Part shown: positions 11,114-18,103 of the stretch, one piece after another | Numbering within the stretch: position 1 is the stretch's first letter | Layout: each line of letters begins with the position of its first letter | Assembly (NCBI RefSeq): GCF_021026375.1 | Contig: NZ_JAJNDB010000001.1 | Location: 2,046,001 to 2,110,000, forward strand | Direction of reading: 5' to 3' | DNA: 64,000 nucleotides | Origin: Actinomycetospora endophytica | GTDB lineage: Bacteria > Actinomycetota > Actinomycetes > Mycobacteriales > Pseudonocardiaceae | Notes under the pieces: generated by a model | Databases searched by the model: none | What the model was told of the DNA's origin: nothing | The model's input: only the letters and a program-made list of their open reading frames with translations | Translations under genes and position numbers: made by a program

Positions 11114-11653
11114 TCACGCGCGGTCGGACGTCGCGGCGATCGCGGCGGCTACGTCGATCCGCTCGACCCGGGCCTCGACGCCCTGCAGCCCCACCAGGCT
11201 GACCAGGGCGAACAGCAGGTAGACCGCGTCGGCCTCGCGCAGGGTGAGGCTGACGAAGCTGAGCGTGTAGGCGACGTACATCGGGTCGGCGAGCACCGCG
11301 TAGATGCCGCCGTCGGCGAAGCGCGCGCGGCCGAAGAAGTTCCCGTTGAACAGCGCCTGGGCCCCGAGCGCCCGGATCGCCAGGCCGAAGATCACCGAGG
11401 CGGCGACGGTGACGACGAGCCCGAACGGCCGGACCCAGGTCGGCAGCGGCCAGGAGAGCTCGGGGCCTCCGAGAACCAGCACGACGATCAGCGCGATGGC
11501 CGCGCCCCACACGACGACGAGCAGGGCGATGTGCGCGGTCCAGGCCCGTCCACCGAAGACCCGGTCGTAGAACCGGTGCCGCTTCTGGGCCCACACCGCC
11601 GCGGAGTTGATCGCGATGGCCGCGGCGAGGGCGGCCAGGGCGGTCCACAGCAT
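11114..11653 (-). CDS. Isoprenylcysteine/phospholipid methyltransferase-like membrane protein
   Basis: 179 residues with about five hydrophobic segments. The C-terminal part, GIYAVLADPMYVAYTLSFVS followed by an E-R pair, resembles the SAM-binding region of the ICMT/PEMT membrane methyltransferase superfamily, where the usual motif is RHPxY. Here the His-Pro is replaced by Asp-Pro, so catalytic activity is uncertain. The start ATG 11653 is preceded by GGTGGGGGA on the minus strand. It is divergent from the peroxiredoxin gene. Confidence 0.6.
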   Translation of the reverse strand: MLWTALAALAAAIAINSAAVWAQKRHRFYDRVFGGRAWTAHIALLVVVWGAAIALIVVLVLGGPELSWPLPTWVRPFGLVVTVAASVIFGLAIRALGAQALFNGNFFGRARFADGGIYAVLADPMYVAYTLSFVSLTLREADAVYLLFALVSLVGLQGVEARVERIDVAAAIAATSDRA

Positions 11654-11697
11654 CGGTCGTCCCCCACCGGGTCGAGGGCCTCGTGGGCCGGTCGGTC

Positions 11698-11703
11698 TAT
11701 CGT
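11698..11703 (+). promoter_or_regulatory. Candidate -10 box (TATCGT) of a leaderless mRNA
   Basis: TATCGT lies eight bases before GTG 11712 with no ribosome site between. This matches the leaderless layout seen elsewhere in the window, with a slightly longer spacer. Confidence 0.35.
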
Positions 11704-11711
11704 CCACCGCC

Positions 11712-12167
11712 GTGACGCTCGTCGCGGAGGTGGGGCAGCCGGCCCCCGACTTCACGCTCGAGGGCACGGACGGCCCCTTCACGCTGTCCGAGCACCGTGG
11801 CGAGCGGGTGGTGCTGCTCTTCTACACGATGGACCGGGGCTCGGTCTGCGCGCGGCAGTTCCGCTCGTACTCGGTCAACCAGGCCGCCCTCGGCGAGCTC
11901 GGCGCGACCGTGGTCGGCATCAACGGGCAGGGGCTCGAGTCGCACCGTCGCTTCCAGCGCCGCGACGGCATCCCGATCCCGCTGTTGTCCGATCCCGGGC
12001 TCACGGTGGCCTCGGCGTACGGCGCCGCGATCCCGGTGGTCGGGACGCGGCGCTCGGTGATGGTCGTCGACGAGCAGGGCGTGCTGCGCCATCGCCACGT
12101 CCACACCGTCGGGGTCACCTTCGCCAGCGTCGCCGACCTGCGGCGGGTGCTCGACGAGGTCGGCTGA
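11712..12167 (+). CDS. Peroxiredoxin-like (AhpC/TSA) protein
   Basis: 151 residues of thioredoxin fold: VGQPAPDFTLEGTDG at the N-terminus, then VVLLFYTMDRGSVCARQF, where the cysteine sits at the peroxidatic position of 1-Cys/BCP peroxiredoxins. GINGQGLESHRRFQRRDGI and FPLLSDP-like segments follow. The usual Pro/Thr before the cysteine are replaced (GSVC), so activity needs proof. The start GTG 11712 is chosen because the family begins just before VGQPAPDF; an upstream TATCGT fits a leaderless mRNA. It ends 79 bases before the selenoprotein operon and is not clearly part of it. Confidence 0.75.
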   Translation: MTLVAEVGQPAPDFTLEGTDGPFTLSEHRGERVVLLFYTMDRGSVCARQFRSYSVNQAALGELGATVVGINGQGLESHRRFQRRDGIPIPLLSDPGLTVASAYGAAIPVVGTRRSVMVVDEQGVLRHRHVHTVGVTFASVADLRRVLDEVG

Positions 12168-12200: not shown

Positions 12201-12288
12201 TTCGGCTCCGCCTCGTGCGTGCGTTTCCGTGTCCGAGGACGGCCGATGACACAGCACGCCGATAGGGCACGCACGAGGCGGAGCCGAA
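12201..12288 (+). promoter_or_regulatory. 22-bp perfect stem whose loop holds the ribosome site and start codon
   Basis: Bases 12201-12222 and 12267-12288 are exact complements (TTCGGCTCCG... with ...CGGAGCCGAA). The 44-base loop contains GAGGAC (12235-12240) and the ATG at 12246. The right arm is translated as residues 8-14 of the protein. Part of the left arm (CGTGCGTGCGTTTCCGTGT) recurs in the palindrome at 2896-2979. It could be a translation control element, or a dispersed palindrome that landed at a gene start. Confidence 0.7.
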
Positions 12289-13943
12289 TCGCGCTGTGCG
12301 GCGGGATCTACTCGAACCCGTACGCCCTGCGCGCCTTCGTCGCCGACGCGCGCCGCCGCGGGGCCGACCGCCTGATCTGCCTCGGAGACTTCGGCGCGTA
12401 CGGCGCCGAGCCGGAGGCGGTGTGGCCTCTGTTGGACGAGCACGGGATCGAGTGCATCGCCGGCAACTACGAGGTCGCGATCGGGTCCCGCCAGGCCGAC
12501 TGCCTGTGCGGCTACACCGACGACACCGACAACGCCTTCGGCCAGATCGCCTACGACTACACCTTCGCGCACACCTCCGAGGCCTTCGCCGCGTGGATGG
12601 CGACGCTCCCGATCGAGCGGCGCTTCGACGTCGACGGCGTCGCGGTGCACCTGGTCCACGGCTCACCGCTTCAGCTCAACGACTTCTGGTGGGAGTCCCT
12701 CGACGACGACGCCCATCGCATGCGCGCCGACGCCTCGGGCGCGGACGTCGTGTGCTGCACCCACTCCGGCCTGCCCTGGACGCGGCGGATCACCCGGTCC
12801 GACGGCGGCGAGACGCTCGCCGTCAACGTCGGGGTGCTCGGTCGTCCGGCCAACGACGGCGAGCGCCACGTCTGGTACGCGCTGCTCGACCTCGACGACG
12901 GGGCCGCGTCGGCCGAGCTCGTGCCGCTCGACTACGACTGGCGGGCGCAGGCGGCGTCGATCCGGGCGGCGGGTCTGCCCGAGTCGTTCGCCGAGGTGAT
13001 CGAGACCGGCTGGTGGACCTCCTGCCTGGAGATCCTCCCGCCCGCGGAGCGCTCCCGCGGCCGGTTCCAGCTCTACCGGTCGGTGCTCGCGCAACTCTCC
13101 GGTGTGGATCCGACCCCTGGCGATCGGCCCGTCGTGCCGCTGTTCGGCTCGGAGCTCTTCCCTCCCCGGCTCTGGATCTACACCAACTTCGACTGCAACC
13201 TGGCCTGCTCCTACTGCTCGGTGGCCTCGTCCCCGCAGGCCCCGCGCCGGCGGCTGGGCCTCGGGCGGTTCACCGCGCTGGTCGACGAGGCCCTGGACGC
13301 CGGCGTCACCGAGGTCTACGTGACCGGCGGCGAGCCGTTCCTGGAGAACGACCTGGTCGAGATGCTGCTCTACGCCGCCGAGCGCCTCGAGGTGGTCTGC
13401 CTGACCAACGGGATGCTCTACCGCGGCCGGCGCCGCGCCGAGCTCGAACGGCTCGCGGGGCATCCGGGCCTGACGCTGCAGACCTCCCTCGACGGCTCCG
13501 AGGGGGCGCACGACGCGCAACGTGGCCGCGGGACCTGGGCCCGGGCGATGGAGGGCGTCGACATCGCCCGCTCGCTCGGCCTGCCGGTGCGGGTCGGGAT
13601 GACCGAGACCAGCGGGAACGCCGGGCAGGGCGACGCCCTGCGCACGATCCTGGCCGACCACGACGTGGCGCCCGAACAGGTCGCGGTCCGGCCCCTGGTG
13701 GCCCGGGGGAACTCGGCCGAGGGTGTCCTCGTCGCCCCGGAGAACACCGTTCCGGAGCTGACCGTCGCCGCCGACGGCTGGTTCTGGCACCCGGCGGGGG
13801 CCGACCGGGCGACCTCGCCCGACATGCTGATCGGCAGTCCCGAGGTCGGGCTCGTCGAGGCCCGCCGCCGCGTCGTCGAGCGGTTCCTGACGATGCGCCA
13901 GCGTGACGGGTCGTTGCCGACGATCTACCAGTGCGCGGTCTGA
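12246..13943 (+). CDS. Metallophosphoesterase-like/radical SAM fusion protein
   Basis: 565 residues. Residues 15-240 follow the calcineurin-like phosphoesterase plan (CLGDFGAYG, GNYE, HLVHGSP, CCTHSG). Two metal-ligand motifs are altered: SDIHGN-type is GGIYSN and GNHD is GNYE. Residues 310-565 are a radical SAM domain with Cys317, Cys321 and Cys324 in CNLACSYC for the 4Fe-4S cluster and TGGEP at 360-364 for SAM. Phosphoesterase, radical SAM and type-2 transferase genes are a known rSAM/selenodomain association; the fused form and the substrate are unknown to me. ATG 12246 has GAGGAC upstream inside a hairpin loop. It is the first gene of the 12.2-18.1 kb operon. Confidence 0.8.
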   Translation: MTQHADRARTRRSRIALCGGIYSNPYALRAFVADARRRGADRLICLGDFGAYGAEPEAVWPLLDEHGIECIAGNYEVAIGSRQADCLCGYTDDTDNAFGQIAYDYTFAHTSEAFAAWMATLPIERRFDVDGVAVHLVHGSPLQLNDFWWESLDDDAHRMRADASGADVVCCTHSGLPWTRRITRSDGGETLAVNVGVLGRPANDGERHVWYALLDLDDGAASAELVPLDYDWRAQAASIRAAGLPESFAEVIETGWWTSCLEILPPAERSRGRFQLYRSVLAQLSGVDPTPGDRPVVPLFGSELFPPRLWIYTNFDCNLACSYCSVASSPQAPRRRLGLGRFTALVDEALDAGVTEVYVTGGEPFLENDLVEMLLYAAERLEVVCLTNGMLYRGRRRAELERLAGHPGLTLQTSLDGSEGAHDAQRGRGTWARAMEGVDIARSLGLPVRVGMTETSGNAGQGDALRTILADHDVAPEQVAVRPLVARGNSAEGVLVAPENTVPELTVAADGWFWHPAGADRATSPDMLIGSPEVGLVEARRRVVERFLTMRQRDGSLPTIYQCAV

Positions 13944-14782
13944 GGCGGGGCGCGGTCATCGGGGCCCGGCGCTCTGGGACGAACGACTCGTTCGTGGCGT
14001 CTACGTGCACGAACGAGTCGTTCGTCCCGAACGGCGAGGGGGACGGCGAGGGGGCCGGCGACGGGGTCGGCGAGCAGCACGGCGGAGGTCCCGACGGCGA
14101 GCTCAGCGTCTCGATCATCGTCCCGGTCCGCGACGAGGAGGCCGGGATCGAGACGACGCTTCGGGCGCTGCGGACGGCGTTCGGGGACTGCGAGCTGATC
14201 GTCGTCGACGGCGGCAGCCGTGACGCCACCGTCGCGCGGGCCGAGCCGCACGCGACGGTGCTGCACGCCGACGGCGGCCGCGGGCCACAGCTCAACGCCG
14301 GCGCGGCCGCCGCCCGGGGCGATGTCCTCTGGTTCGTGCACGCCGACGCCCAGCTCGACCCGGGAGCGCTCCCGGCCCTGCGCGCGGCGCTGGCCGACGA
14401 GCGCGTGGTCGGCGGCGGCTGCCGGCTGCGGTTCGACCGCACCGGCCCGGTGCTGCGGTGGCTGCAGTGGACCTCGAACCTGCGGGCCCGGCACCTGCAC
14501 TGGATCTTCGGGGACCAGGCGATGTTCGTGCGCCGGAGCACCTTCGACGAGGTCGGCGGCTTCCCCGAGATCCCGATCATGGAGGATCTGGAGATGTCGC
14601 GCCGCCTGGCCCGCCGTGGACGCCTCGCGGTCCTGCCGACGCCGTGCACGGCCTCCGCCCGCCGCCTCGTCGACCAGGGCCCGGCCCGGATGCTGGTCCT
14701 CATGCAGCTCTACAAGCTGCAGTACTTCCTCGGCGTCGACCCGCACACCATCCGACGCCGGTACGAAGCGAGACACCGATGA
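13931..14782 (+). CDS. Glycosyltransferase family 2, TIGR04283-like (rSAM/selenodomain-associated)
   Basis: 283 residues. A GT2 domain starts near residue 58 with SVSIIVPVRDEEAGIETTL, followed by VVDGGSRD, GRGPQLNAGA, WFVHADAQLD (metal-binding DxD-like) and FGDQAMFVRR. This pattern is that of the transferase named for association with radical SAM/selenodomain pathways (also annotated as arsenosugar-type). The donor and acceptor are unknown here. No ATG/GTG lies next to the domain. GTG 13931, overlapping the upstream stop, gives a leader of about 57 residues, partly encoded by a palindrome and rich in Gly/Glu/Asp. GTG 13997 is an alternative start. It ends in an ATGA overlap with the next gene. 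Confidence 0.75.
   Translation: MRGLRRGAVIGARRSGTNDSFVASTCTNESFVPNGEGDGEGAGDGVGEQHGGGPDGELSVSIIVPVRDEEAGIETTLRALRTAFGDCELIVVDGGSRDATVARAEPHATVLHADGGRGPQLNAGAAAARGDVLWFVHADAQLDPGALPALRAALADERVVGGGCRLRFDRTGPVLRWLQWTSNLRARHLHWIFGDQAMFVRRSTFDEVGGFPEIPIMEDLEMSRRLARRGRLAVLPTPCTASARRLVDQGPARMLVLMQLYKLQYFLGVDPHTIRRRYEARHR
13976..14028. repeat. Perfect 21-bp-arm palindrome inside the start of the glycosyltransferase gene
   Basis: Bases 13976-13996 and 14008-14028 are exact complements around an 11-base loop. Each arm is itself palindromic around its centre (CGAACGA C TCGTTCG), so the element holds four copies of one core. If GTG 13931 is the true start it is translated. If translation starts later, it is a structured 5' leader. 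Confidence 0.75.
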
Positions 14783-16152
14783 GCCACGACCTCCTCGTGA
14801 TCGGCGCCGGCGCCGGCGGGCTCTCCGCCGCCCGTGCCGGCGTCCGGGCGCGGCTGGCGACCGCACTGGTCACCGACGGACCGATCGGCGGCGACTGCAC
14901 GTTCACCGGCTGCGTCCCGTCGAAGACACTCCTCGCCGCGGCGGCGGCCGGCGCCTCGGCGACGGACGCGCTCGCCCGCGTCCGCGCCACGGTCGCCCGC
15001 GTCGCCGCCACCGAGACACCGGAGGCGCTCCGCGACGAGGGCGTCGACGTCGTCGAAGGACGGGCCCGGTTCGCCGGGCCGGGCGCGCTGGTCCTGGACG
15101 ACGGCCGGACGTTGGCCGCCCCCCGCATCGTCCTCGCCACCGGCGCGACGCCGCTGCTGCCCGACCTGCCGGGGCTCGCCGCCGCCGACCCGCTGACCAC
15201 CGACACCGTGTTCGACCTCGACGGCACCCCGGGCTCGTTGATCGTGCTCGGGGCGGGCCCGGCCGGGTGCGAGCTTGCTCAGGCGTTCGCCCGCCTCGGG
15301 ACCGCCGTCACGCTCGTCGACCGGGCGGACCGCGTGCTGCCCGGCCTGGACGCCGACGTGAGCGCGGTGGTGGCCGACGCGCTGCGCCGCGAGGGCGTGG
15401 ACGTGCGGCTCGGTACCGGACCCGCCGACGTCGAGGCGCTCGGTGACGGCCGGCTACGGCTTCACGACGTCGAAGCCGACCGCCTCCTCGTCGTGACCGG
15501 CCGCCGCCCGGCCACCGCCGATCTCGACTTGGACCGGGCCGGCATCGGGATCGGCGCCGACGGTGCCGTCGTCATCAACGACCACCTCGCGACGACGACG
15601 GCGGGCGTGTTCGCCGTCGGTGACGTGGCCGGGACCCAGCACACCCACGCGGCCGACGAGATGGGGCGGATCGCGGTGGCGAATGCCGGGCGACCGGCGT
15701 GGCGGCGGCGCCGGTTCCGGCCGCACCTCGTGCCCCGCGTGGTATTCACCGACCCGGAGGTGGCGACGATCGGGCTGAGCGAGTCCGAGGCCGGGCCTGA
15801 CGCCTGGGTCGCGGAGATCCCGATGAGCGCGGTCGACCGCGCCGTGACGGCCGGACGCGAGGAGGGGTTCGTGCGGCTGGTGGCCGGCCCGCCTCCCGGA
15901 ACGAGGCGCCTCACCCGCGACGGGCTGCGGAAGGTCGGTGGCGGACGTCTGGTCGGCGCCACGATCGTCGCCGAGCGCGCGGGGGAGATGATCGCGGAGG
16001 TGGGACTGGCGATGCGGACCGGCGCGCTCACCGGTCGGCTCGCCCAGACCGTGCACGCCTACCCGACGTGGTCGCTCGCGGTGCGCCAGGCCGCGGCGGC
16101 GCTGGCCACCGGCGCGAGCCCCGGGGTCACGGTTCGGAGGGCAGTCCGGTGA
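14779..16152 (+). CDS. Mercuric reductase/dihydrolipoamide dehydrogenase-like flavoprotein
   Basis: 457 residues, full length for the family. It has FAD motif VIGAGAGGLSAA, redox cysteines Cys40 and Cys45 in GDCTFTGCVPSKT, NAD(P) motif VLGAGPAGCELAQAF, second FAD motif FAVGDVAGT and dimerisation segment VVFTDPEVATIGLSE. It should pass electrons from NAD(P)H through FAD to a disulfide or similar acceptor. The C-terminal Cys pair of true mercuric reductases is not seen, and the lipoamide-type His-Glu pair is not obvious (HAYPTW is present). Its place between the transferase and the second radical SAM gene suggests it reduces a pathway protein, perhaps the selenoprotein. ATGA and GTGA overlaps join it to both neighbours. 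Confidence 0.85.
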   Translation: MSHDLLVIGAGAGGLSAARAGVRARLATALVTDGPIGGDCTFTGCVPSKTLLAAAAAGASATDALARVRATVARVAATETPEALRDEGVDVVEGRARFAGPGALVLDDGRTLAAPRIVLATGATPLLPDLPGLAAADPLTTDTVFDLDGTPGSLIVLGAGPAGCELAQAFARLGTAVTLVDRADRVLPGLDADVSAVVADALRREGVDVRLGTGPADVEALGDGRLRLHDVEADRLLVVTGRRPATADLDLDRAGIGIGADGAVVINDHLATTTAGVFAVGDVAGTQHTHAADEMGRIAVANAGRPAWRRRRFRPHLVPRVVFTDPEVATIGLSESEAGPDAWVAEIPMSAVDRAVTAGREEGFVRLVAGPPPGTRRLTRDGLRKVGGGRLVGATIVAERAGEMIAEVGLAMRTGALTGRLAQTVHAYPTWSLAVRQAAAALATGASPGVTVRRAVR

Positions 16153-17525
16153 GTCTCAGGACCTGGTGGCGCCGCACCCGCCCCACCGACCCGGAATTCG
16201 TCGCCGCCCTGGCCCGCCGCTGGGCGGAACTCCCGGCCGTGGCCCGGACGAGGGCGCAGGTCATCGGGCGGCACGCGGTCGGCTGCGAGGGCACCCACGG
16301 CGTCTTCCCGCGCTGCAACCTGTCCTGCGCCCCCTGCTACCACTCGCGCGACGCCAACCGGGTGCGCGTCGACGGGGAGCACACCGTCCGCGAGGTCGAT
16401 GCGCAGATGTCGCTGCTGCGCCAGCGCCGAGGACCGGTGGCCCACGCCCAGCTCATCGGCGGCGAGGTGACCCTGCTCGACCCCGACGACCACGCCGCGG
16501 CCCTGCTCGCCATGCGCGCCCACGGCCGCGAGCCGATGAGCATGACCCACGGCGACATGGACGACGACTACCTCGAGCGGCTCGCCCTCGGGCCCGACGG
16601 CCGCCGTCGGCTGCACCGGATCTCGTTCGCCGGCCACTTCGACTCGCTGATGACCGGCCGCCGCGGCATCCCCCGGCCGCCCGACGAGGCGTCGCTGAAC
16701 CCGTACCGGCGGGCCTTCGTCGCACGGTTCGAGCGCCTGCGCCGCGAGCACCGGGTGCGGTACTTCGTCGCGCACACCATGACGGTCTCGCCGGCCAACG
16801 TCGCCGAGGTCGCCGGCGTGACCCGCGACGCCGGCCGGATGGGCTTCGGGATGCTCGCGTTCCAGCCCGCCGCGTTCGTCGGGGACCATCGCCGCTGGCA
16901 CGAGCCGTACCGCGCGATGACCGACGACGACGTCTGGGCGGAGATCGCGCGGGGGATCGGCGCCCGGCTGGACCACACGTTCGTCCAGCACGGCGACCTG
17001 CGGTGCAACCGCGTGGTCTACGGCTTCTGGGTGGGCGCCCGGTGGCATCCGATCGCCGACGGCGACGACCCGCGCGACGTCGCCGCCCGCGACGCGTTCC
17101 TGGACTGGTTCGGGCCGGTGAACTTCATCGGCTCGTCGGCGCCGGTCCTGCTCGTCAAGATCGCCCGGGTGGTCGCGCGGCACCCGCGGGCGGTGCCGAT
17201 CGCGCTCGGCTGGGTGCGGCGCCGACTGCGGGCGGTGGGGCTTCGCGCCGTGCTGCGGCACGGGGTCCGGCCGATGTCGGTGGTCATGCACTCGTTCATG
17301 GACGCCGCCGACGTCGCGCCGGCGTGGGCTGCGACGCAGCGCGGGGAGGTCGCCGACGACGAGGCGGTGCGCGCGACCCAGGAGCGGCTCGCCGCCTGCC
17401 ACTACACGATGGCCCACCCGTCGACGGGCGAGCTGGTGCCGGCCTGCGTCCAGCACGCCGTGCTCGACCCCGCCGAGAACGTCGAGCTGCGGCGCCTGCT
17501 CCCGATCGCGGAGGTGCGTCGCTGA
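16149..17525 (+). CDS. Radical SAM protein, partner of the selenoprotein
   Basis: 458 residues. The radical SAM cluster cysteines are Cys56, Cys60 and Cys63 in RCNLSCAPCY. The usual GGE is seen as LIGGEVTLL. The middle is helical and lacks obvious known accessory domains. Near the C-terminus LAACHYTMAHPSTGELVPAC brings two more cysteines and histidines together and could bind a second cluster or the substrate. It differs clearly from the radical SAM half of the first gene, so two distinct radical steps are likely. The start GTG 16149 overlaps the upstream stop as GTGA, and the stop overlaps the selenoprotein start as TGATG. Confidence 0.8.
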   Translation: MSLRTWWRRTRPTDPEFVAALARRWAELPAVARTRAQVIGRHAVGCEGTHGVFPRCNLSCAPCYHSRDANRVRVDGEHTVREVDAQMSLLRQRRGPVAHAQLIGGEVTLLDPDDHAAALLAMRAHGREPMSMTHGDMDDDYLERLALGPDGRRRLHRISFAGHFDSLMTGRRGIPRPPDEASLNPYRRAFVARFERLRREHRVRYFVAHTMTVSPANVAEVAGVTRDAGRMGFGMLAFQPAAFVGDHRRWHEPYRAMTDDDVWAEIARGIGARLDHTFVQHGDLRCNRVVYGFWVGARWHPIADGDDPRDVAARDAFLDWFGPVNFIGSSAPVLLVKIARVVARHPRAVPIALGWVRRRLRAVGLRAVLRHGVRPMSVVMHSFMDAADVAPAWAATQRGEVADDEAVRATQERLAACHYTMAHPSTGELVPACVQHAVLDPAENVELRRLLPIAEVRR

Positions 17526-18103
17526 TGCCCCGGCTGGTGACCGACCCGGTCGCTCTCACCGGCCTGGTGCTCCCCGACGCGCGGGATGGCCGCGCGGTCG
17601 ATCTCGGGGCGTTGCCGGGTCCGGCCGTGCTCGTCGCGATCCGCCACCGGCATTGACTGCCCTGCCGACGCCACCTGGTCCAGGTGGCCAGCGCCGCCGG
17701 TGACGCCGTGCCCGTCGTGGCGGTGGGGTTCGACCGCGCCGATCACCTCGGCCCGCTGGCCGACCATCTCGGCTGGTCGGCGCCGTTCCTCGCCGACGAG
17801 GACCGCCGGCTGTACGCCCGGCTCGGGATGCGGCGGGCGCCGTGGTGGCGGGTGTTCTCGCCGCGCACGCTCGCGTTCTACCGCCGCGCGGTCCGCGGCG
17901 AACCGGTCCCTGAGCCCGATGATCCGGCGCCGGTCGACGTGTTCCAGATGGGCGGCGACGCGGTGGTCGTCGGCGGCGTGGCCGTGCGGCGCTGGTTGCC
18001 GCGGACGCCGGTCGACCGGGTCGCCCCCGAGGTGGTCGTGGCCGCGGCCAGGGGCGAGCGCAGCGACGGGGAAGCGGGCGGGGCCTACACCGAGAGCATG
18101 TAG
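17525..18103 (+). CDS. Selenocysteine-containing AhpC/TSA-like thioredoxin-fold protein
   Basis: 192 residues if TGA 17654-17656 is read as selenocysteine (residue 44). The frame before and after the TGA is the same and forms one thioredoxin-fold protein: LPGPAVLVAIRHRH, then Sec44-Leu-Pro-Cys47-Arg, then VVAVGFDRADHLGPLADHLG and FLADEDRRLYARLGM. The Sec replaces the first Cys of the CPxCR-type site of AhpC-TSA_2/PRX-like2 proteins. A SECIS-like hairpin follows at 17670-17688. It is the last gene of the coupled operon. Its likely role is a thiol/selenol redox or peroxidase step on the product of the radical SAM pathway. The alternative is a nonsense mutation, which I consider unlikely. Its end overlaps the convergent gene by 19 bases. 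Confidence 0.8.
17654..17688 (+). promoter_or_regulatory. In-frame UGA and bacterial SECIS-like hairpin
   Basis: TGA (17654-17656) is followed after 13 bases by GCCACCTG-GTC-CAGGTGGC (17670-17688). This is a perfect 8-bp stem with a 3-base loop, or 7 bp with loop GGTCC. A short stem about 11-14 bases after the UGA, with G and U in the apical loop, is the known requirement for SelB-directed Sec insertion in bacteria. Confidence 0.75.

What the first reader, a model, noticed from the sequence alone, without database searches (positions are those of the whole stretch)
12246..18103. Five-gene radical SAM/selenoprotein pathway of unknown product
Five genes overlap by 1-13 bases and must be co-translated: a phosphoesterase-radical SAM fusion, a TIGR04283-like glycosyltransferase, a mercuric-reductase-like flavoprotein, a second radical SAM enzyme and a selenoprotein. 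Phosphoesterase, type-2 transferase and radical SAM genes are a known rSAM/selenodomain association. Here that set is joined to a second, different radical SAM and a stand-alone selenoprotein with its own reductase candidate. Inference: this is a pathway making a sugar-linked sulfur, arsenic or selenium metabolite, with a redox relay from flavoprotein to selenoprotein.
Basis: partly seen in the sequence, partly recalled or inferred. Interest (0 to 1): 0.9.

Follow-up and report, generated by a model that had tools for sequence, protein, structure and literature searches.

The report
Two-radical-SAM selenoprotein gene cassette, product unknown
A set of neighbouring genes shared in varying combinations by many soil actinobacteria, including a genuine selenium-containing protein and two unusual radical enzymes, probably builds a sugar- or lipid-linked metabolite, perhaps containing arsenic, that has not been identified.

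The parts
11607..12167 (+). AhpC/TSA peroxiredoxin-like gene just upstream (start codon unsure); possible first gene of the unit
   Evidence: PF00578 97.7 bits; found by tblastn only in L038 and L065, both the same genus, among the loci
12201..12288 (.). perfect 22-bp inverted repeat (12201-12222 / 12267-12288) at the start of the fusion gene
   Evidence: absent at this place in L038 and L065
12246..13943 (+). fusion of a calcineurin-fold (metallophosphoesterase-like) domain and radical SAM domain 1 (MPE-rSAM1); an upstream in-frame GTG at 12219 is also possible
13976..14028 (.). twin palindromic element, a dispersed repeat, at the start of the glycosyltransferase gene
   Evidence: 32 palindrome sites in own genome; also in L065, absent at this junction in L038
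13931..14782 (+). TIGR04283 family 2 glycosyltransferase; true start uncertain (homology to L038 starts at residue 59)
   Evidence: 228.5 bits, cut-off 182
14779..16152 (+). MerA/lipoamide-dehydrogenase-like flavoprotein (Flav) with a CxxxxC active-site motif
   Evidence: most cluster copies group apart from the own-genome paralogues
16149..17525 (+). radical SAM enzyme 2 (rSAM2), Tes-like fold by VIA-align, 7 invariant Cys
17525..18103 (+). selenoprotein (Sel), AhpC-TSA_2/SelL-related, motif RHRH-U-LPC
17654..17656 (+). TGA codon read as selenocysteine
   Evidence: stop at this site in 12 of 12 homologues; TAG with a CUA tRNA-Sec in G257
17670..17688 (+). candidate SECIS hairpin GCCACCUGGUCCAGGUGGC
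   Evidence: similar sequence in homologues, but folding energy no better than shuffles (z 0.16)

Best explanation
This is the Actinomycetospora form of a modular actinobacterial biosynthetic cassette whose chemistry is arsenosugar-like. Radical SAM enzymes make an unusual bond from a 5'-deoxyadenosyl radical, a TIGR04283 glycosyltransferase adds a sugar, and a dedicated disulfide redox chain keeps thiol- or metalloid-reactive intermediates reduced: NAD(P)H to the FAD flavoprotein, then to the selenoprotein's Sec-Cys pair. Shown here by computation: gene content, modular conservation, selenocysteine decoding by comparative evidence, and the altered metal site of the phosphoesterase domain. Inferred: electron flow Flav to Sel; that the five invariant Cys of the phosphoesterase fold form a soft-metal or thiolate site; that rSAM2 acts on an alkyl or lipid-like substrate; and that the product is an arsenosugar- or arsenolipid-type compound in Streptomyces and a related compound here.
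For: GT over the arsenosugar GT cut-off. GT and MPE-rSAM1 together in 33 loci, alone in 2 and 1. ArsM (532-699 bits to a Streptomyces query) in 16 of 80 loci, 16 of 16 with the phosphorylase and 15 of 16 with MPE-rSAM1; in L083 ArsM lies between Flav and rSAM2. MPE-rSAM1, GT, a Flav homologue and a phosphorylase together without rSAM2 in L185. Sel directly next to rSAM2 or Flav in 9 of 13 Sel-bearing loci: the window, L038, L065, L067, L069, L073, L076, L120 and L137; Sel-Flav pair without the rSAMs in L192. Sec decoding. Five invariant Cys and loss of DxH in the phosphoesterase domain, 27 of 27, against DIH in SapH. In 396 phylum genomes rSAM2 (10, E up to 1e-40) and MPE-rSAM1 (7, E up to 1e-60) coincide in 4, Fisher p 7e-6, or 1.6e-4 without the own genome.
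Against: In the own genome no ArsM or phosphorylase orthologue was found (best hits 44.8 and 21.2 bits); 10 of 16 other genomes tested lack ArsM at E 1e-20, and one of the 6 that have it is the query's own. Neither rSAM passes the ArsS model (P0001 33.9 bits, cut-off 300). A phosphorylase beside an rSAM could merely clear 5'-deoxyadenosine. 56 of 66 Flav-bearing loci lack Sel; Sel is not next to rSAM2 or Flav in L048, L085, L089 and L143; the Flav copies beside Sel in L067, L069 and L137 are a separate long branch. G505, with the Sel-Flav pair, has no tRNA-Sec over the cut-off (46.3 against 47). The Tes-like fold points to lipids rather than sugars. No product or assay exists.
Confidence: 0.35

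Rival explanations
1. Lipid pathway: rSAM2 is a tetraether-synthase-like enzyme that abstracts hydrogen from alkyl chains and joins or modifies lipid tails; the glycosyltransferase or (in the other cluster type) a CDP-alcohol phosphatidyltransferase makes the head group, and Flav supplies electrons. No arsenic is involved.
Against: Foldseek alone ranks SkfB and DesII first and 7tol is not in its 50 rows shown; 18% identity; the CDP-alcohol gene is depleted where MPE-rSAM1 is present (5 of 34 loci against 27 of 46); ArsM and the phosphorylase are unexplained.
Confidence: 0.27
2. Selenium or sulfur sugar pathway: the selenoprotein handles selenide or thiols and the product carries Se or S.
For: Selenoprotein and selenocysteine machinery in the same genome; glycosyltransferase present.
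Against: The selenoprotein is absent from most clusters (found in 10 of 80), and the two Streptomyces genomes tested have no tRNA-Sec over the cut-off, so the shared chemistry does not need selenoproteins; the family scans of the window's unit named no Se-incorporating enzyme.
Confidence: 0.12
3. The phosphorylase only clears 5'-deoxyadenosine and the cluster makes an ordinary radical-SAM-modified small molecule, such as a sugar or nucleoside antibiotic, with Flav and Sel as general reductants.
For: rSAM1 resembles SkfB and BlsE; MTAP-family proteins act on 5'-deoxyadenosine (recalled); ECF sigma, MFS and regulator genes in the neighbourhood look like a secondary-metabolite cluster.
Against: Does not explain ArsM inside Streptomyces clusters or the arsenosugar-type GT.
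Confidence: 0.18
4. Two or more unrelated modules (rSAM2-Flav; MPE-rSAM1-GT; Sel) that merely sit together in some genomes.
For: rSAM2 and Flav occur without MPE-rSAM1 and GT in many loci; MPE-rSAM1 matched without an rSAM2 match in G394, G425 and G591.
Against: Repeated co-location in rearranged orders in distant actinobacteria.
Confidence: 0.08

Closest known systems
Arsenosugar biosynthesis gene sets (ArsM, ArsS, TIGR04283 GT)
   Same: GT passes the family cut-off; radical SAM enzymes; in Streptomyces relatives an ArsM and a nucleoside-phosphorylase relative in the same cluster
   Different: No ArsS by the curated model, no ArsM found in the window's genome, a phosphoesterase-like fusion, a Tes-like second rSAM, and a stand-alone selenoprotein instead of a selenodomain on the rSAM
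Tetraether synthase Tes / GDGT-MAS (PDB 7tol, 7tom)
   Different: 18% identity, far under the curated cut-off, not in Foldseek's own 50 rows, different genomic context, only four invariant Cys beyond the rSAM motif
TrsS radical SAM (seleno)protein family
   Same: Best, though weak, NCBIfam match of rSAM2 (19.0 bits); also a selenoprotein-linked system
   Different: Far under the cut-off of 490; here Sec is in a separate protein
SelL-related / Prx-like selenoproteins (NF040769, PF13911)
   Same: UxxC motif in a thioredoxin-type fold family
   Different: 77 bits against a cut-off of 120; own conserved motif RHRx-U-[LI]PC
SapH/PH1004 metallophosphoesterases
   Different: DxH replaced by GxY, the GHxH region by C[T/S]H[S/T]G, and five invariant Cys
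Rv1681 (MoeX) family radical SAM
   Same: rSAM1 domain aligns to positions 72-326 of its 326 (262 bits)
   Different: Under the cut-off of 380; here fused to the phosphoesterase-like domain

Membership tests
Selenoprotein | in-frame stop at a conserved site with coding conservation on both sides | tested here: met
   12 of 12 homologues; 12 TGA and 1 TAG with the window included
Selenoprotein | tRNA-Sec matching the codon, SelA, SelB in the genome | tested here: met
   own tRNA-Sec 70.3 bits over cut-off 47, UCA anticodon; selA 407.8 (cut-off 267.9), selB 273.3 (cut-off 242.25); CUA in TAG-bearing G257
Selenoprotein | SelD present | not tested
   no search made
Selenoprotein | stable bacterial SECIS hairpin | tested here: inconclusive
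   hairpin seen and similar sequence in homologues, but energy z 0.16 against shuffles
TIGR04283 arsenosugar-type glycosyltransferase | score over the curated cut-off | tested here: met
   228.5 against 182
Arsenosugar pathway | ArsM in the genome | tested here: not met
   best own-genome hit 44.8 bits with a Streptomyces ArsM query; the assembly is 96.67% complete
Arsenosugar pathway | ArsS radical SAM (TIGR04167) | tested here: not met
   MPE-rSAM1 33.9 bits against 300; ArsS is not among the matches of rSAM2 at E up to 0.01
MerA mercuric reductase | TIGR02053 cut-off | tested here: not met
   301.4 against 454.45; protein ends in VTVRRAVR without the C-terminal Cys pair (the pair as a MerA hallmark is recalled)
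Tetraether synthase Tes | curated model cut-off | tested here: not met
   17.6 against 450
Tetraether synthase Tes | fold of solved GDGT-MAS | tested here: met
TrsS | curated model cut-off | tested here: not met
   19.0 against 490
SelL-related redox protein NF040769 | curated cut-off | tested here: not met
   77 against 120; PF13911 34.4 over 27
Catalytic metallophosphoesterase | DxH and GHxH metal ligands | tested here: not met
   GxY in 27 of 27 and C[T/S]H[S/T]G in 27 of 27 sequences of A3; SapH has DIH
Rv1681 family radical SAM | curated cut-off | tested here: not met
   262.4 against 380

The most novel reading that the evidence does not exclude
The cassette makes an arsenic-carbon (or other metalloid-carbon) compound by a new route: a calcineurin-fold domain turned into a cysteine-lined metalloid site is fused to one radical SAM enzyme, a tetraether-synthase-like radical SAM couples the element to an alkyl or ribosyl chain, and a selenoprotein reduced by its own MerA-like flavoprotein is the metalloid reductase. 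It would be a widespread actinobacterial arsenolipid or arsenosugar pathway not built on ArsS.
Probability: 0.15. Interest if true: 0.87.

Novelty: new variant of a known kind. Interest (0 to 1): 0.62.

Why it matters
If right, it gives soil actinobacteria a pathway for unusual sugar- or lipid-linked metabolites, with several enzyme types that no model used here names: a Tes-like radical SAM family, a phosphoesterase fold with a cysteine site, and a selenoprotein whose Sec codon changes with the tRNA anticodon. The Streptomyces members are directly testable, because ArsM in their clusters predicts which element to look for.

Tried and rejected
Taken up and set aside. (a) Selenocysteine at the TGA ending the fusion gene (CAV-TGA): all 37 full-length relatives examined also end in CA[VI]-TGA, but the letters after it are not alike and often run into stops, and two Streptomyces genomes tested have no tRNA-Sec over the cut-off, so it is read as a true stop; why it is TGA every time is unexplained. 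(b) rSAM2 as a selenoprotein: the TGA reported in G225 lies after the conserved C-terminus; the TGA reported for G590 is not within the aligned stretch, residues 8-444. (c) MerA proper: under the cut-off. (d) Literature: no paper on this cluster surfaced in searches (open-licence PMC only); Haft and Tolstoy 2025, PMC12013261, a likely place, is not held. (e) Rfam found no family in the window at gathering scores. (f) Foldseek alone does not list GDGT-MAS in its 50 rows; the Tes likeness rests on VIA-align and a weak profile hit.

Rows left out. A1 left out L057, whose translation held a stop. A2 used the window plus 43 of the 80 genome-contig loci; A3 the window plus 26 of the 36 such loci listed with a match. 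The 80 loci are the best of 256 relatives, so counts of k of 80 describe close relatives, many with short flanks (45 of 80 are 19 kb or longer). The score thresholds were set by me. tRNA-Sec anticodons were read for 10 of the 13 Sel-bearing genomes (those of L065, L076 and L137 not tested). That Geodermatophilaceae are known to use UAG for Sec (Mukai and others 2016) is recalled, not seen.
Full report
WHAT IS THERE. The window lies in a 6.98-Mb genome of 17 contigs. The nearest named relative of its rSAM2 is Actinomycetospora sp. TBRC 11914, 92% identical. The five genes are present: a calcineurin-fold/radical SAM fusion, a TIGR04283 glycosyltransferase (GT), a MerA-like flavoprotein (Flav), a second radical SAM enzyme (rSAM2) and a protein with an in-frame TGA (Sel). 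GT/Flav and Flav/rSAM2 overlap by 4 bases and rSAM2/Sel by 1; the same three overlaps are seen in L038 and L065. The fusion/GT overlap of 13 bases requires the GTG at 13931. Homology of GT to L038 starts at residue 59, and the stretch between holds twin palindromes that occur as a dispersed repeat, 32 sites in the genome, present at this junction in L065 and missing in L038. A perfect 22-bp inverted repeat sits at the start of the fusion gene in the window but not in L038 or L065.

THE SELENOPROTEIN IS REAL BY COMPARISON. All 12 Sel homologues found in the loci searched have a stop codon at the Sec site within RHRx-*-[LI]PC. Reading codons, 12 of 13 rows (window included) have TGA and L048 has TAG. 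tRNA-Sec of ten of the 13 Sel-bearing genomes was read: nine have anticodon UCA, and G257, the genome of L048, has CUA. A second candidate selenoprotein, an ArsM-like methyltransferase, has TGA in G300 and TAG in G257 at the same WTG-stop-IAG site. The own genome has tRNA-Sec with selA and selB within about 9 kb of it. A hairpin with a GGUC loop follows the TGA and its sequence recurs in most homologues, but folding energy alone does not distinguish it from shuffles.

CONSERVATION. rSAM2 occurs in 26 of 298 genomes sampled from the order and 10 of 396 from the phylum (E up to 1e-40); the fusion in 7 of 396 (E up to 1e-60); both in 4 (own, G406, G449, G678; in G449 on different contigs), Fisher p 7e-6, or 1.6e-4 without the own genome. 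Sel was found in 2 of 396 at E 1e-12. In 80 named loci around rSAM2 (the best of 256 relatives) the counts are Flav 66, GT 35, MPE-rSAM1 34, CDP-alcohol phosphatidyltransferase 32, phosphorylase 28, methyltransferase MT5 28, YnjB-type binding protein 23, ArsM 16, Sel 10. GT and MPE-rSAM1 occur together in 33, alone in 2 and 1. All five window genes occur together in 6 of the 80 and in L038. Two broad cluster types appear: one with MPE-rSAM1 and GT, and one with a YnjBCD-like ABC importer and a CDP-alcohol phosphatidyltransferase; 5 loci carry both MPE-rSAM1 and the latter gene. In a quick tree of 117 rows most cluster flavoproteins group apart from the own-genome paralogues; those of L067, L069 and L137 are a long separate branch. 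In G394 the fusion, GT, a Flav homologue (34%) and a phosphorylase occur together, and no rSAM2 was matched in that genome. In G505 Sel (with TGA) and Flav form a divergent pair in a 9-kb stretch without the two radical SAM genes, though its best tRNA-Sec match is just under the cut-off.

WHAT IT PROBABLY DOES. In Streptomyces, ArsM sits in the cluster, in L083 between Flav and rSAM2. All 16 ArsM loci also have the phosphorylase and 15 have MPE-rSAM1. Methylation, radical adenosylation, removal of adenine and glycosylation are what an arsenosugar route needs: adenosylation of arsenic by a radical SAM enzyme is described in the review passages read in PMC12159101; the adenine-removal step is recalled. 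In the window's genome no ArsM or phosphorylase orthologue was found, and 10 of 16 other genomes tested lack ArsM at E 1e-20. I therefore hold an arsenosugar- or arsenolipid-like product at about one in three, a purely lipid product at about one in four, and leave the remainder to other small molecules. The relay NAD(P)H to Flav to Sel is plausible from adjacency (Sel next to rSAM2 or Flav in 9 of 13 loci) but unproven; because 56 of 66 Flav loci lack Sel within the fetched flanks, Flav must have another role too.

LITERATURE. Passages were read in PMC13188914 (selenoproteome review), PMC12159101, PMC9385802 and PMC11868695; other papers were seen only in search listings. No paper on this cluster surfaced in the ten searches made, which cover open-licence PMC papers only.

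Noticed in passing
window 13976-14028: Twin 17-bp palindromes 30 bases apart, a dispersed repeat with 32 palindrome sites in the genome.
   Followed up: partly
window 12201-12288: Perfect 22-bp inverted repeat overlapping the start of the fusion gene; not at this place in L038 or L065.
   Followed up: partly
window 13932-13943 and 37 relatives: The fusion protein ends in Cys-Ala-Val/Ile followed by TGA in 37 of 37 full-length relatives, with no likeness beyond; the invariant C-terminal Cys and the single stop codon used are unexplained.
   Followed up: partly
L158 and L160: tRNA-Sec genes with CUA anticodons (G257 and Geodermatophilus obscurus); ARAGORN labels them tRNA-Pyl.
   Followed up: yes
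L212 and L213: ArsM-like methyltransferase with an in-frame TGA (G300) or TAG (G257) at the same WTG-stop-IAG site: a second candidate selenoprotein following the codon switch.
   Followed up: partly
L046, L111, L142 and similar loci: rSAM2 and Flav with a YnjB-type binding protein, permease, ATPase and a CDP-alcohol phosphatidyltransferase, recalling the uncharacterised E. coli ynj operon (likeness recalled).
   Followed up: partly
L064: Own-genome selenocysteine locus: selA, selB, tRNA-Sec and a formate dehydrogenase close together.
   Followed up: partly
L192:2-5400: Divergent Sel-Flav pair beside a ResA-like thioredoxin, an ECF sigma factor and an anti-sigma factor.
   Followed up: partly
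window 11607-12167: AhpC/TSA peroxiredoxin-like gene upstream, found at the same place only in two other Actinomycetospora-group genomes among the loci searched.
   Followed up: no
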